Assembly: GCA_021399405.1 (NCBI GenBank)
Contig: JAAFKL010000366.1
Span: forward strand, 1-7,683
Direction of reading: 5' to 3'
Length of the DNA stretch: 7,683 bases
Source of the DNA: Candidatus Heimdallarchaeota archaeon
Lineage (GTDB): Archaea; Asgardarchaeota; Heimdallarchaeia; Heimdallarchaeales; Kariarchaeaceae
Every line of letters starts with the position of its first letter. Within the stretch, counting starts at the first letter, position 1. A program made the translations under genes and the position numbers. Below, piece after piece: positions 9 through 5,941 of this stretch. The notes under the pieces were generated by a model. That model searched no databases, was not told the origin of the DNA, and saw only the letters and a list, made by a program, of their open reading frames with translations.

Positions 9-770
9 TTATAATTCTAAACAGAATTCAAGGAAATATTTTGCAACTCGATTGTAGTGATTCATGGTTTTGGCAGCTTTACCTTTACCATAATCATCAA
101 GAAATGATTGAACTATTTCATAATTTATGGAAGTAGCGTTATTTTTGATTGCAAAATTCAATATATATCTCCCAATATACTCATGGATATACCAATAGCT
201 CTTGGAGGTGGATTTTGTCTCAACATGGGTCATCCAAGGTTTATAGATCGAATCATAATCTAATGTTGTTAATAGTTCTGTTTGATGTTTTGCCCCTATT
301 GAAGGAGTTGATAATTTAGTAATTGGTTTAGATGCTTTTACAGATACTTTCGATCTTGGTTGTCTTAATTTTCGTTTATTTTCACGTAATAATTCGACTT
401 CAGCTTTCAATTTGGAAAATTTTTCATTTTCCAATGTTTGGTGTTGTTGCAGCTGTTGATCAACTTCAAGCAAAGTTCGTACCTCACTAAGTGGAATTTT
501 GTAATCACTTGTTTTTCGTAATAAATATTTTCCCACTTGGGAGGCTGCCAATTTGTGTTTTTCAATTATTAATTCGTTTTCATTAATGGAGAAATTTAGT
601 CTCAACCAGCGATTAACATGAATACCTGAAAAATTCCTAATTCCACGTTTTCTAATCTGATTTAACATTGATTTGCTCACTGAATTGTAAAACTCTTTAA
701 TATTTTCTGGGATTTCTTCGAAGGAGTTCGGATCCACCATCTCTTTAATCAATATCTGCTTAGAAGGCAT
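9..770 (-). CDS. Protein with C-terminal tyrosine-recombinase-like core-binding domain, no catalytic domain
   Basis: 253 aa, starting at ATG (770-768) and ending in TAA at 11-9. Residues about 172-253 look like the SAM-like core-binding domain of phage-integrase-type tyrosine recombinases: four short helices, a 'tkSTSKSYWYIHEYIGRYI' stretch, a linker, then 'AAKTMNHYNRVAKYFLEF', the usual end of that domain. The protein stops exactly where the catalytic domain (R...HxxR...Y) would begin, so no recombinase active site is present. Residues about 98-136 are a charged, Gln/Glu/Lys-rich probable coiled coil, followed by a basic Ser/Thr/Lys linker (137-165). The N-terminal 90 residues are not recognised. 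It could be a truncated integrase, a stand-alone DNA-binding protein, or the 5' part of a gene broken just outside the window. There is no Shine-Dalgarno; a TATA-like box lies about 31 nt upstream. The ORF is certain to be open; the domain call is moderate. Confidence 0.6.
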   Translation of the reverse strand: MPSKQILIKEMVDPNSFEEIPENIKEFYNSVSKSMLNQIRKRGIRNFSGIHVNRWLRLNFSINENELIIEKHKLAASQVGKYLLRKTSDYKIPLSEVRTLLEVDQQLQQHQTLENEKFSKLKAEVELLRENKRKLRQPRSKVSVKASKPITKLSTPSIGAKHQTELLTTLDYDSIYKPWMTHVETKSTSKSYWYIHEYIGRYILNFAIKNNATSINYEIVQSFLDDYGKGKAAKTMNHYNRVAKYFLEFCLEL

Positions 771-3226: not shown

Positions 3227-3826
3227 ATGGCAATAAATAATTCATCTACTGTTTTTCGAAAACGAAAAGGATATTTGAAATTACTATTGTCACATCATCC
3301 CCTTTGTGGATTTTTTGAATCAGACACATATAATATTAGTAAATTAAAAATATGTAAGGGCTGTACAGCGGGTTATAGTGGAATATATATCGGAATTTAT
3401 CTTTTCATCACCAGTTTAATCCCTGCTTTTTTGATAATCAAATCGGTAGAACAATATTTTACAATCGTGTTGATTGCAGGATTTATTACATTGTTATATG
3501 AATTTCAGAGAAAAAAAATCATTCCCCGATTTCCAATAAGGTTGATGATGGGTACTTTATTCATAGTGTCAATTTATGCAATAATTAAGCTTGATAATTG
3601 GTTTCACAAATACCTAATTATCATGTTTCTTTTCTTTTTCTCAAATATTATTGGGTACTCACGTTATCGAAAACTCCAACGTGTTTGTAGCACTAATTGT
3701 GGAGAGAGAAGATTAGATTGGTGCGAATATGCATTAGGTGATTCCATACCACCCGAACTCATTCAATTGAATACGTTTGATAATATTATTGAACCACCTG
3801 TTGAAATTGATAATCAGATATCATAA
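3227..3826 (+). CDS. DUF2085 family membrane protein, paralogue A
   Basis: 199 aa from ATG 3227. The N-terminal region has the DUF2085 signature in its archaeal form: SHHPLC (H23, H24, C27), then 15 residues, then CKGC (C43, C46), then a glycine-rich first membrane helix (YSGIYIGIYL). Four membrane segments are likely, at about 52-72, 77-92, 104-121 and 128-144. After the last one comes a second cysteine group, C154-x3-C158-x7-C166. The His/Cys clusters at both ends would lie on the same side of the membrane and could bind a metal; this is inference, since the family has no established function. It is paralogous to the gene at 5357-5941, which has the same spacing between motifs. It converges with the MerB-like gene, whose stop lies 63 nt downstream. 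Confidence 0.75.
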   Translation: MAINNSSTVFRKRKGYLKLLLSHHPLCGFFESDTYNISKLKICKGCTAGYSGIYIGIYLFITSLIPAFLIIKSVEQYFTIVLIAGFITLLYEFQRKKIIPRFPIRLMMGTLFIVSIYAIIKLDNWFHKYLIIMFLFFFSNIIGYSRYRKLQRVCSTNCGERRLDWCEYALGDSIPPELIQLNTFDNIIEPPVEIDNQIS

Positions 3827-3889: not shown

Positions 3890-4609
3890 TTAACAACAAG
3901 AACATTCATTTTGTTCTGTATTCAAAGAGGTAGCAGACTCGTTTTCGTTACTACAACAAGCATTCTGTCCACCAGTTAATTCTATTCCTTGATCTTTTGC
4001 AATTGCTGTATTAATACAAGATTGGAACGCCGACTGGGTGAATTGCGATCTCGCAGATACTAATGCTTCATCAAAATCCATTATATCATTATGCTTGGTA
4101 TCCACATTGCTCTTATCTGAATAAAAATTTATGGACGGACAGAGTGAAACTGCAGGTGCAGTTCCCTTTGGTACTTCACTAGTTTTCTTGTGAGCAATAA
4201 CTAGATCTTGAAATTCTTGCTTTTCAAGTGAAGGATCAATTACTATTTTAATAGGGTCGCCAGTACTGAAATCAGTTGTTTCAATTGTTGTTTTTGTCTC
4301 AAAAGTATATGCTACGCCCAAAGCATCAATTGCACACATTGAATATCCGGATCCAATACCCTCCACAGTAACCTTATAGTTGGATTTCACTGGACTAATG
4401 GGATACGCACCAATCAATTTCTTTTCCTTATTAAAAGCTAATAAACCACGTTTTGCAAGACTTAGATAGTCAAGACTTTCAAATTCTGTCTGGAACTCGT
4501 GTTCAATTTTTTCCATATTGATGCCGTTTAGTAGTCGTGTTAGCACTTTTAAGTGCAAATCAAAAAATGCCGATTCATCAATGTTTGGTAATGTTATTTG
4601 GGATGTCAT
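3890..4609 (-). CDS. merB: MerB-like organomercurial (alkylmercury) lyase with Cys-rich tail
   Basis: 239 aa; MerB enzymes are usually about 210. MerB cleaves the carbon-mercury bond of organomercurials by protonolysis, releasing Hg(II) and a hydrocarbon. The three catalytic residues are identifiable: C92 and D95 in SMCAIDALG (E. coli C96/D99 in WCALDTL) and C157 in SLCPSINFYSD (E. coli C159 in SFCCHVHFF). The conserved TGxPI (116-120) and the SARSQFTQSAF helix near the end also align. The N-terminal region (about 15-85) matches the helical, winged-helix-like domain of MerB, though it is somewhat short. The position of E. coli C117 is not a cysteine here. The C-terminus is extended by about 25 residues with C218-C219 and C236, C238, C239, which could hold the released metal. 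It is transcribed divergently from a PadR-type regulator. A GGAG at 8 nt spacing and a TATA-like box 27 nt upstream both exist. Family assignment by recall; the actual substrate is unproven. Confidence 0.8.
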   Translation of the reverse strand: MTSQITLPNIDESAFFDLHLKVLTRLLNGINMEKIEHEFQTEFESLDYLSLAKRGLLAFNKEKKLIGAYPISPVKSNYKVTVEGIGSGYSMCAIDALGVAYTFETKTTIETTDFSTGDPIKIVIDPSLEKQEFQDLVIAHKKTSEVPKGTAPAVSLCPSINFYSDKSNVDTKHNDIMDFDEALVSARSQFTQSAFQSCINTAIAKDQGIELTGGQNACCSNENESATSLNTEQNECSCC

Positions 4610-4617
4610 AGTTTATA

Positions 4618-4621
4618 CTCC
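4618..4621 (-). promoter_or_regulatory. Possible Shine-Dalgarno of the MerB-like gene
   Basis: On the minus strand GGAG (within GTGGAG) lies 8 nt before the ATG. It is the best ribosome-binding site candidate in a window where other genes lack one. If it is used, transcription would start further upstream, for example from the TATATA-like sequence at 4685-4693. Confidence 0.3.
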
Positions 4622-4632
4622 ACGTAAAATCT

Positions 4633-4640
4633 GATATATT
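4633..4640 (-). promoter_or_regulatory. TATA-like box of the MerB-like gene
   Basis: On the minus strand the sequence is AATATATC, centred about 27 nt from the ATG at 4609, the leaderless distance. Its upstream edge merges with inverted repeat 1 (4637-4651), so the repeat would cover the BRE/TATA region. An alternative TATA-like sequence on the same strand, TTATATATC at 4685-4693, would give a 50-nt leader. Confidence 0.4.
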
Positions 4641-4651
4641 CCAGAGGAATA
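4637..4651. promoter_or_regulatory. Candidate operator 1 (MerB-like gene side)
   Basis: This is a perfect 6-3-6 inverted repeat, TATTCC-AGA-GGAATA. It is centred at 4644, 35 nt upstream of the MerB-like start, overlapping the probable TATA/BRE. It shares its half-site with the repeats at 4699-4726 and 4744-4764. Confidence 0.6.
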
Positions 4652-4698
4652 ATGATTCAGATCCTATATCTCGTTGTTCGTTGTGATATATAAGAGTT

Positions 4699-4726
4699 AG
4701 TTCCATCGGAATATTCTTTGGGAATA
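4699..4726. promoter_or_regulatory. Candidate operator 2, two overlapping half-site pairs
   Basis: Two overlapping copies of the motif are present: AGTTCC-ATC-GGAATA (4699-4713) and TATTCT-TTG-GGAATA (4712-4726, one mismatch). The block 4701-4715 (TTCCATCGGAATATT) is repeated at 4749-4763 with 14 of 15 bases identical, 48 bp away. It lies between the two promoters and could be an auxiliary site for dimer-dimer contacts or looping. Confidence 0.5.
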
Positions 4727-4743
4727 AAAATGCCTTATCTGAA

Positions 4744-4764
4744 AAATATTCCATCAGAATATTT
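4744..4764. promoter_or_regulatory. Candidate operator 3 (regulator side)
   Basis: The arms AAATATTCC (4744-4752) and AGAATATTT (4756-4764) pair over 8 of 9 positions around ATC. The centre, 4754, is 36 nt upstream of the regulator ATG. The right arm runs into the probable TATA box, as expected for autorepression. Confidence 0.6.
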
Positions 4765-4768
4765 ATTT
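4759..4768 (+). promoter_or_regulatory. TATA-like box of the PadR-type gene
   Basis: An AT-rich box (ATATTTATTT) is centred about 26-27 nt before the ATG at 4790. No Shine-Dalgarno precedes that ATG, so a leaderless transcript starting at or near 4790 is likely. This favours ATG 4790 over the second ATG at 4796. Confidence 0.45.
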
Positions 4769-4789
4769 CGTCCAAATTGCCCCTAGAAT

Positions 4790-5233
4790 ATGGTTATGGC
4801 AGATACATTAAATAAACATAGTGAAAATATGTTAATTGTTCCAATGATTGTAGATAAATCAATCCCTCTCACATCTGCTCAGTCGATTTTCCTGATGGTA
4901 CTAAAAGGTGAAGGAAGACCGATGTCAGGTAAAGAGATTGTTGATATGGTTGAATTAAAGCTTGGTGAAAACTCGATACCCACTCCTGGTGCGGTATACA
5001 AAATATTGAATCATTTAGAAGTGAAAAAAAAGTATATTAAGGAAACTACTACTAAAATGCAAAAACAGGAAGATGGTCGAATTAGGTATTACACTTTGAC
5101 TGATTTAGGAAATCAGATGGTAGCTAATATTTACGAGCATGTTAAGAATATTTTCTCTTTCATGTGTTATTGTTGTATTGACATCTCTAATGCACAGAAG
5201 ATAGAATTGTTACCTCCATATCCTTTGAAATGA
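4790..5233 (+). CDS. PadR-family winged-helix regulator with MCYCC motif
   Basis: 147 aa. Residues about 27-115 follow the PadR/winged-helix pattern: LTSAQSIFLMVLKG (helix 1), PMSGKEIVDMV (helix 2), PTPGAVYKILNHLE (recognition helix; compare the usual SPGTLYRxLxxLE), then a basic wing DGRIRYYTLTDLG, where PadR proteins have RRxYxLTxxG. The C-terminal helix (about 108-129) normally mediates dimerisation; here it ends in C126-Y-C-C129, the only cysteines in the protein. Such a cluster could bind a thiophilic metal, in a dimer or alone. The gene faces the MerB-like gene, and the spacer is full of inverted repeats. I infer that it represses both genes and is released by mercury or an organomercurial. 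The family is certain; the ligand is hypothetical. Known mercury regulators belong to the MerR or ArsR families. Confidence 0.8.
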   Translation: MVMADTLNKHSENMLIVPMIVDKSIPLTSAQSIFLMVLKGEGRPMSGKEIVDMVELKLGENSIPTPGAVYKILNHLEVKKKYIKETTTKMQKQEDGRIRYYTLTDLGNQMVANIYEHVKNIFSFMCYCCIDISNAQKIELLPPYPLK

Positions 5234-5356: not shown

Positions 5357-5941
5357 GTGTCCACAAAAAAAGGGTTGGCAAAATCACTCAAAGATAGAAC
5401 ATATTCTTGGACGATGTTTCACTATCGAATAGCACACCACCCCACCTGCTCCAATTTTGATGAACATTTTTATCAAATTAAAAACAATAAAGTATGTCGT
5501 GGATGTGCAATGATGTATTCAGGATACATCGTGGGTATATTCAGTATATTAATTCTATTTTATCTAGAAAAATTACGAATAAATGAATTACACCTAGCTC
5601 TGTATTTCCTTTACCTACCAACGGTTGCCACATCTTATATGGTGAAGAATAGACAAGTCAAGGATGTGGCAAGGTTCTTATTGGGCAATGGGATAATTGT
5701 TGCAATAGTTTTAATTGTGTGGGGAATTTTCAGTAGAACATATTGGATATCGCTGTTTGTATCGCTACAGTATTTATTATTTAGGGCCCTTTTGTCTAAA
5801 AAAAGAGAGAAGTCAAATAATGATGTTTGTACCAGTTGTGATGAATTTACAAACCCTAGGTGCTCAGGATTAAGAGATTATCATGACCGATTTGCAATTT
5901 ATCAATCTGGATTAATCAGGCTCGATGCTTTTTCGGAGTGA
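5357..5941 (+). CDS. DUF2085 family membrane protein, paralogue B
   Basis: 194 aa from GTG 5357. It carries the same motifs as the gene at 3227-3826: AHHPTC (H27, H28, C31), exactly 15 residues, CRGC (C47, C50), and a first membrane helix with YSGYIVGIF. Likely membrane segments are at about 53-71, 77-95, 107-124 and 128-143. The C-terminal cysteine group is C158-x2-C161-x7-C169. Overall sequence similarity to paralogue A outside the motifs is low, so the duplication is old or the two arrived separately. Function unknown. The gene starts 123 nt after the PadR-type gene and has its own promoter-like sequence, so it is not clearly in an operon with it. The TPR gene follows after about 40 nt. 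Confidence 0.75.
   Translation: MSTKKGLAKSLKDRTYSWTMFHYRIAHHPTCSNFDEHFYQIKNNKVCRGCAMMYSGYIVGIFSILILFYLEKLRINELHLALYFLYLPTVATSYMVKNRQVKDVARFLLGNGIIVAIVLIVWGIFSRTYWISLFVSLQYLLFRALLSKKREKSNNDVCTSCDEFTNPRCSGLRDYHDRFAIYQSGLIRLDAFSE

What the first reader, a model, noticed from the sequence alone, without database searches (positions are those of the whole stretch)
3890..5233. MerB-like lyase paired divergently with a PadR-type regulator: candidate undescribed organomercury response unit
Seen: an ORF with all three MerB catalytic residues (C92, D95, C157) faces a PadR winged-helix gene across a 180-bp spacer rich in a shared inverted repeat. Known: characterised mer systems are controlled by MerR (bacteria) or ArsR-like proteins, and MerB is normally accompanied by MerA. 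None of these appears here. Inference: a PadR protein has taken over metal sensing and controls a stand-alone organomercurial lyase in an archaeon.
Basis: partly seen in the sequence, partly recalled or inferred. Interest (0 to 1): 0.75.

Follow-up and report, generated by a model that had tools for sequence, protein, structure and literature searches.

The report
MerB-like lyase under arsenic-type PadR switch
In what looks like an Asgard archaeon, a gene resembling the enzyme that breaks down methylmercury sits beside a cysteine-bearing PadR regulator and a DNA switch that some relatives use next to an arsenic-methylating enzyme, which hints at an unfamiliar form of toxic-metal control.

Summary
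ORF 3890-4609(-) is a divergent MerB homologue with C92, D95 and C157. It faces a PadR gene, and the spacer carries repeated dyads. PadR control of the gene is well supported, but the context found is arsenic. In 227 held genomes of the Asgard phylum, the 7 clear PadR orthologues all lie divergently next to an arsenite methyltransferase (ArsM) scoring above the curated cut-off. Their spacers carry tandem GAATATTC boxes 5 bp apart. A matrix built only from those arsM spacers gives its three best hits in the window inside the merB/padR spacer. A MerB gene of the same clade (L001) has the same boxes before its start, with no padR in the 556 bases available. The PadR family (102 proteins, a CC pair in 100) is Asgard wherever an organism is named; the window's clade has CxCC. 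Most likely: a thiol-based metal(loid)-responsive repressor controlling a stand-alone organometal lyase. Not shown: binding, ligand, substrate, activity. PadR stands beside merB only in the window and, by inference, on one more contig; 0 of 6 other Asgard merB loci read have it. New variant of known kinds.

The parts
3890..4609 (-). MerB-like lyase ORF, 239 aa
   Evidence: PF03243 above cut-off; MerB fold
4334..4336 (-). codon of C92 (MerB C96 position)
   Evidence: invariant in 34 of 34; aligned to MerB2; codon checked
4325..4327 (-). codon of D95 (MerB D99 position)
   Evidence: invariant in 34 of 34; codon checked
4139..4141 (-). codon of C157 (MerB C159 position)
   Evidence: invariant in 34 of 34; aligned to MerB2 Cys; codon checked
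3893..3973 (-). Cys-rich C-terminal tail (residues 213-239, 5 Cys), mostly of low confidence in the model
   Evidence: pLDDT under 50 for 219-239; sequence
4635..4653 (.). operator-like dyad 1, at -44..-26 from the merB start codon
   Evidence: 16.4 bits by a matrix trained on arsM spacers; position
4697..4715 (.). weak dyad 2 (overlaps dyad 3)
   Evidence: 5.2 bits
4710..4728 (.). operator-like dyad 3
   Evidence: 15.1 bits
4745..4763 (.). operator-like dyad 4, exact AATATTC-N5-GAATATT
   Evidence: 19.5 bits, best hit in the window
4687..4694 (-). TATA-like element of merB (-85)
   Evidence: weak: simple consensus score 9.7
4807..4814 (+). TATA-like element of padR (-37 from 4844)
   Evidence: weak: simple consensus score 11.7
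4790..5233 (+). PadR-family regulator; likely start 4844 (129 aa)
   Evidence: PF03551 above cut-off; start by alignment of relatives
5165..5176 (+). CxCC motif (C124, C126, C127 of P0036) at the end of the last helix
   Evidence: CC in 100 of 102 relatives, CxCC in 6 of 102

Best explanation
The pair is a stand-alone detoxification unit. A PadR-family repressor dimer binds GAATATTC boxes (AATATTC-N5-GAATATT dyads) in the spacer, one of them close before the merB start codon, and keeps merB off. A thiophilic metal or metalloid species binds the CxCC cysteines, the repressor lets go, and a MerB-fold enzyme is made that protonates a carbon-metal bond using C92, D95 and C157; a Cys-rich tail may hold the released metal. 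Shown by sequence: both families, the catalytic residues, the conserved cysteines, and the operator-like boxes shared with arsM promoters of PadR-bearing relatives. Inferred: binding, repression, ligand, substrate.
For: MerB family and fold. Catalytic residues invariant in 34 of 34. The 7 PadR orthologues over 84 bits in 227 genomes (next match 50.6 bits) are all divergent from an ArsM over the 263-bit cut-off (294-336 bits). Box arrays lie in 7 of 7 of those spacers. The arsM-trained matrix has its top three window hits in the spacer. In the 7 genomes the shorter dyad occurs at 30 sites: 8 in the padR-arsM spacers; of the other 22, 17 inside ORFs. One of 3 further intergenic sites lies 17 nt before a flavin-reductase-like gene whose homologue follows arsM in another genome. 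L001, of the same MerB clade (100/96), has boxes at -47..-16 from merB. CC pair in 100 of 102 PadR.
Against: PadR adjacency in 0 of 6 other Asgard merB loci read. L003 and L004 have other divergent genes and other palindromes, and their merB starts have no boxes. The matrix also gives isolated hits of 14.3 bits in L004, 12.4 in L006 and 9.6 in L003 away from merB starts, so one hit alone means little. Exact dyads occur in 31 genomes without a clear orthologue. NCBIfam MerB and SaoL scores are far below cut-off. The MerB C117 position is D113, the '117alt' kind. Cysteines alone do not prove metal sensing. No expression or binding data.
Confidence: 0.6

Rival explanations
1. The MerB-like enzyme is part of an arsenic regulon and works on an organoarsenical or another organometal rather than on organomercury, for instance undoing or completing what ArsM does.
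For: Operator-like boxes and regulator family shared with arsM; MerB and SaoL curated models not met; divergent clade with a long stem.
Against: No MerB homologue is known to me to cut C-As (recalled). All three Hg-C cleavage residues are kept in 34 of 34. No ArsM gene lies in the window.
Confidence: 0.2
2. Real organomercurial lyase, but the PadR is a general stress or thiol-redox regulator and the cysteines answer to oxidation or disulfide stress, not to metals.
For: Vicinal cysteines can be redox switches (recalled); a flavin-reductase-like gene carries the boxes in G043.
Against: Seven of seven clear orthologues face ArsM, an arsenic enzyme family; ArsM and MerB share metal(loid) chemistry rather than redox defence.
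Confidence: 0.2
3. Chance neighbourhood: the two genes are divergent but functionally unrelated, and the boxes control only padR itself.
For: PadR adjacency not seen at 6 other Asgard merB loci; the best dyad (4745-4763) lies at -99..-81 from the padR start.
Against: Box 4635-4653 lies at -44..-26 from the merB start; L001 merB has tandem boxes at its start with no padR visible in 556 bases; P0002 and P0039 share a contig length of 1410.
Confidence: 0.1

Closest known systems
MerB organomercurial lyase (PF03243; PDB 3F0O, 5C17)
   Different: 13-18% identical in the structural alignments; D113 in place of C117; PadR beside it instead of MerR; no mer genes in the window; Cys-rich C-terminal tail; curated MerB model not reached
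SaoL, MerB-like lyase of the Sec-assisted organometallic system (NF040728)
   Same: Best curated NCBIfam match (53.4 bits)
   Different: Below the 140-bit cut-off; no other window protein scanned against NCBIfam matched an SAO model (7 others scanned); on a separate branch from three proteins over the SaoL cut-off
PadR regulators of Asgard arsM loci found here
   Same: Family, CC pair, divergent layout, GAATATTC boxes
   Different: Partner gene is ArsM, not MerB; CC lacks the third cysteine of CxCC
ArsR-type As(III) repressors and MerR (recalled)
   Same: Proposed to work like them: small DNA-binding regulator with a cysteine site that controls a neighbouring detoxification gene
   Different: PadR (PF03551), not ArsR or MerR family; different cysteine arrangement and operator
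MerB homologues of Heimdallarchaeota reported in PMC8261052
   Same: Same broad lineage and enzyme family (passages)
   Different: The word PadR does not occur in that paper's main text; MerR and MerD are named as mer regulators. The window's gene was not matched to its entries

Membership tests
MerB (PF03243) | Profile score above Pfam gathering cut-off | tested here: met
   50.8 vs 27 bits
MerB (PF03243) | C96, D99, C159 equivalents | tested here: met
   C92, D95, C157 invariant in 34 of 34, aligned at the MerB2 positions (MerB2 has Ser at 99)
MerB (PF03243) | C117 equivalent (canonical signature in PMC8261052) | tested here: not met
   D113 aligns there; such proteins are called MerB-like 117alt
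MerB (PF03243) | MerB fold | tested here: met
MerB (PF03243) | Cleaves Hg-C bonds | not testable with these tools
   needs enzyme assay
NCBIfam alkylmercury lyase MerB (PRK13239) | Score above curated cut-off | tested here: not met
   26.6 vs 193 bits
SaoL (NF040728) | Score above curated cut-off | tested here: not met
   53.4 vs 140 bits
mer operon | MerR regulator and MerA beside merB | tested here: not met
   none among the window's 8 proteins scanned; rest of genome not held
PadR (PF03551) | Profile score above gathering cut-off | tested here: met
   33.7 vs 27 bits
PadR (PF03551) | Winged helix with C-terminal dimerisation helix | tested here: met
Asgard arsM-PadR group found here | CC pair near the C-terminus and GAATATTC boxes in the spacer | tested here: met
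Asgard arsM-PadR group found here | Divergent from ArsM | tested here: not met
   neighbour is MerB-like

The most novel reading that the evidence does not exclude
Asgard archaea have a metalloregulator family of their own, PadR proteins with a vicinal-cysteine sensor, that controls arsenic methylation in several lineages. One clade evolved a three-cysteine (CxCC) sensor and took over a MerB-fold lyase, giving an oxygen-independent organometal lyase inside an arsenic regulon, possibly acting on methylarsenicals, for which I recall only an O2-dependent C-As lyase (ArsI).
Probability: 0.15. Interest if true: 0.85.

Novelty: new variant of a known kind. Interest (0 to 1): 0.6.

Why it matters
It would give Asgard archaea, close kin of eukaryotes (recalled), a PadR-type metal(loid) regulon, with a defined operator and candidate sensor cysteines, that joins arsenic methylation and an organomercurial-lyase homologue. 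It makes two open points directly testable: what 117alt-type MerB proteins without MerA do, and whether PadR proteins can be metal sensors. A relative of the regulator occurs in 'Candidatus Lokiarchaeum ossiferum' (P0096; its neighbours were not read), so expression after arsenite or mercury could be measured if a culture is available.

Tried and rejected
Read as a standard mer operon: rejected, no mer partner in the window and curated MerB model not met. Membership in SaoL: rejected on score. Viral origin: no support; MerB and PadR each gave no relative in viral contigs; phage and plasmid records were not searched. A PadR profile over ORFs of the first 80 loci gave none, L001 included; tblastn of six PadR proteins against L001 and L004 gave only chance-level hits. 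MerA: 0 of 11 genomes (4 with merB, 7 with PadR) reached the cut-off of 454 bits, best 372.8 in G053 and 331.5 in merB genome G002, so a divergent MerA is not excluded.

Strict dyad across the phylum: 37 of 227 genomes have an exact AATATTCN5GAATATT, 46 sites, 31 of the genomes outside the seven PadR genomes; the reversed control pattern is in 7 genomes. Only 7 of the 46 sites are padR-arsM spacers. Of 31 sites in the 30 loci looked at, 25 lie outside known padR-arsM spacers: 19 inside ORFs, 6 not. So a single dyad is not diagnostic; arrays beside PadR are the argument. One search printed L227 and L240 as 'inside' because of antisense ORFs over known spacers. In one search the L125 arsM start was mis-set by 3 bases (one search shows the ATG), so its offsets are 3 too small. 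TATA-like scores in that call are weak evidence: L003 and L004 show such elements too.

A second, weaker PadR group next to ArsM in at least 11 more genomes (pairs read by me from the capped lists, regions) has other palindromes and other C-terminal cysteines; it supports PadR-arsM linkage but not this operator. Literature: searches PadR+arsM, PadR+organomercurial, PadR+arsenite+transcriptional repressor, PadR family+arsenic+metalloid gave nothing on a PadR metal(loid) sensor in the listings; no listed paper of those was opened, and most subscription journals are not held.

The dyad consensus was first seen by eye in spacers that included the window; the matrix letters come only from the seven arsM spacers. 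The 1410-base contig said to carry both P0002 and P0039 was not read; the link is by equal length, both from 'ena', and could be coincidence. The PadR tree has few columns and warns of long branches; the CxCC label was taken from the same sequences.

Full report

The regulator. ORF 4790-5233(+) is PadR. Five close relatives begin at the methionine that corresponds to base 4844, so I take 4844 as the likely start. With an alignment of 13 PadR (6 close ones, 7 from arsM loci) the protein search gave 102 proteins at E<=1e-10; every hit whose name gives an organism is Asgard, counting Promethearchaeota as the Asgard phylum. A CC pair after residue 60 is present in 100 of 102, CxCC in 6 of 102. The six form one clade, 100/99, in a tree of 96 (six short or fragmentary rows left out; few columns, long-branch warnings). 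The model ends its last helix at residue 126, so the CxCC lies at the helix end, where confidence is middling. MarR and PadR chains fit about equally well.

The arsenic link. I searched 227 genomes of the phylum of L003's genome (a Heimdallarchaeota MAG) with the six-sequence PadR profile: 124 had some match at E<=0.001, and seven stood out at 84-114 bits, the next being 50.6. In 7 of 7 the next gene, divergent, is ArsM: NF008823 294-336 bits, cut-off 263. ArsM itself is over the cut-off in 95 of 227 genomes, so most ArsM genomes lack a clear orthologue of this regulator. Reading together, at least 11 further genomes have a weaker PadR divergent from an ArsM; these show other operator-like repeats.

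The operator. The seven arsM-padR spacers all contain tandem GAATATTC-like boxes spaced 5 bp, period 13. A matrix from 19 such sites, none from the window, scored over the window gave 19.5 (4745), 16.4 (4635) and 15.1 (4710), all in the merB-padR spacer, the next 9.2 elsewhere; 0 of 300 Markov spacers reached the maximum, their best being 14.1. Against this, isolated hits of 14.3 (L004), 12.4 (L006) and 9.6 bits (L003) occur away from merB starts. The dyad ATATTC-N5-GAATAT occurs 30 times in the seven genomes (reversed control 0 or 1 in each), 8 of them in padR-arsM spacers. Of the other 22, all viewed, 17 are inside ORFs, 2 straddle an ORF edge and 3 are intergenic. One of the three lies 17 nt before a flavin-reductase-like gene (PF01613); a homologue in G053 follows arsM. 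In the four merB genomes held, which have no clear orthologue of this PadR (none, none, and weak matches), the dyad occurs 1, 2, 1 and 0 times. The exact longer dyad occurs in 37 of 227 genomes, 46 sites, only 7 of them padR-arsM spacers.

Relatives of the MerB gene. Scanning the genome collection with the MerB alignment kept the best 80 of 339 loci, the first six Asgard by title. L001 (52% identical) has boxes scoring 15.8 and 11.1 at -47..-16 before merB and no PadR in the 556 bases available upstream of its ORF. L003 and L004 have a different divergent gene (winged-helix by my reading; HTH_24 just under cut-off for L003, no Pfam hit for L004) and other palindromes. L004, L005 and L006 carry C-terminal extensions of roughly 80-110 residues that I read as winged-helix-like but that Pfam does not name. 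L002 faces a LmbE-like ORF (my reading). So PadR adjacency is 0 of 6. The window, P0002 and P0003 (the L001 gene) form one clade, 100/96, within an Asgard group of 39 rows, 100/99 (midpoint root). P0002 and the CxCC PadR P0039 both have 1410 bases as longest contig, both from 'ena', perhaps the same one. MerB is rare: 6 of 227 genomes with a match, four of them strong. MerA reached its cut-off in 0 of 11 genomes searched, the best at 372.8 of 454 bits.

How it most likely works. In six of seven arsM loci a TATA-like element at about -76 to -87 is followed by the boxes and then the start codon (in L127 at -45); the window's merB has a TATA-like stretch at -85 and a box at -44..-26 (simple consensus, weak evidence). 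That is the layout of a repressor. The cysteines are a natural ligand site for As(III), Hg(II) or organometals (inference). Release would allow synthesis of a lyase acting by protonolysis as MerB does (inference from residues). The Cys-rich tail, seen in 7 of 34 by the rule CC or at least two Cys in the last 35 residues, may hold the product (inference). The substrate stays open: organomercury is the default from the residues; the boxes shared with arsM are the reason to test organoarsenicals.

Known and new. MerB in Heimdallarchaeota and MerB without MerA in about half of MerB genomes are in print (PMC8261052, passages); the word PadR does not occur in its main text. I found no report of PadR control of merB or arsM in the searches (listings only). 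The enzyme and regulator are members of known families; the combination, operator and cysteine motif are the new part.

Noticed in passing
3227-3826 and 5357-5941: Two paralogous small membrane proteins with HHPxC and CxGC motifs flank the merB-padR pair (25% identical over 144 columns, E 3e-11); no Pfam or NCBIfam family above cut-off.
   Followed up: partly
9-770 (-): 253-aa ORF without Pfam match whose end looks to me like the core-binding part of a tyrosine recombinase.
   Followed up: no
L216-L226: A second PadR group divergent from ArsM in 11 Asgard genomes, with TATTGG/CCAATA-type repeats in several spacers and C-terminal CxC or CxxC endings in several: a possible second arsenic-type PadR switch.
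   Followed up: partly
L003:7297-7887 and L004:4411-5043: Another likely winged-helix regulator family, not named by Pfam above cut-off, divergent from Asgard merB, each with a near-perfect palindrome (one mismatch) in the spacer.
   Followed up: partly
L004:5148-6107, L005:1724-2620, L006:7932-8792: MerB-like proteins with C-terminal extensions of roughly 80-110 residues that look winged-helix-like: possible lyase-regulator fusions.
   Followed up: no
L155:4516-4532: Box array 17 nt before a flavin-reductase-like gene in G043; its homologue lies downstream of arsM in G053: a possible second regulon member.
   Followed up: partly
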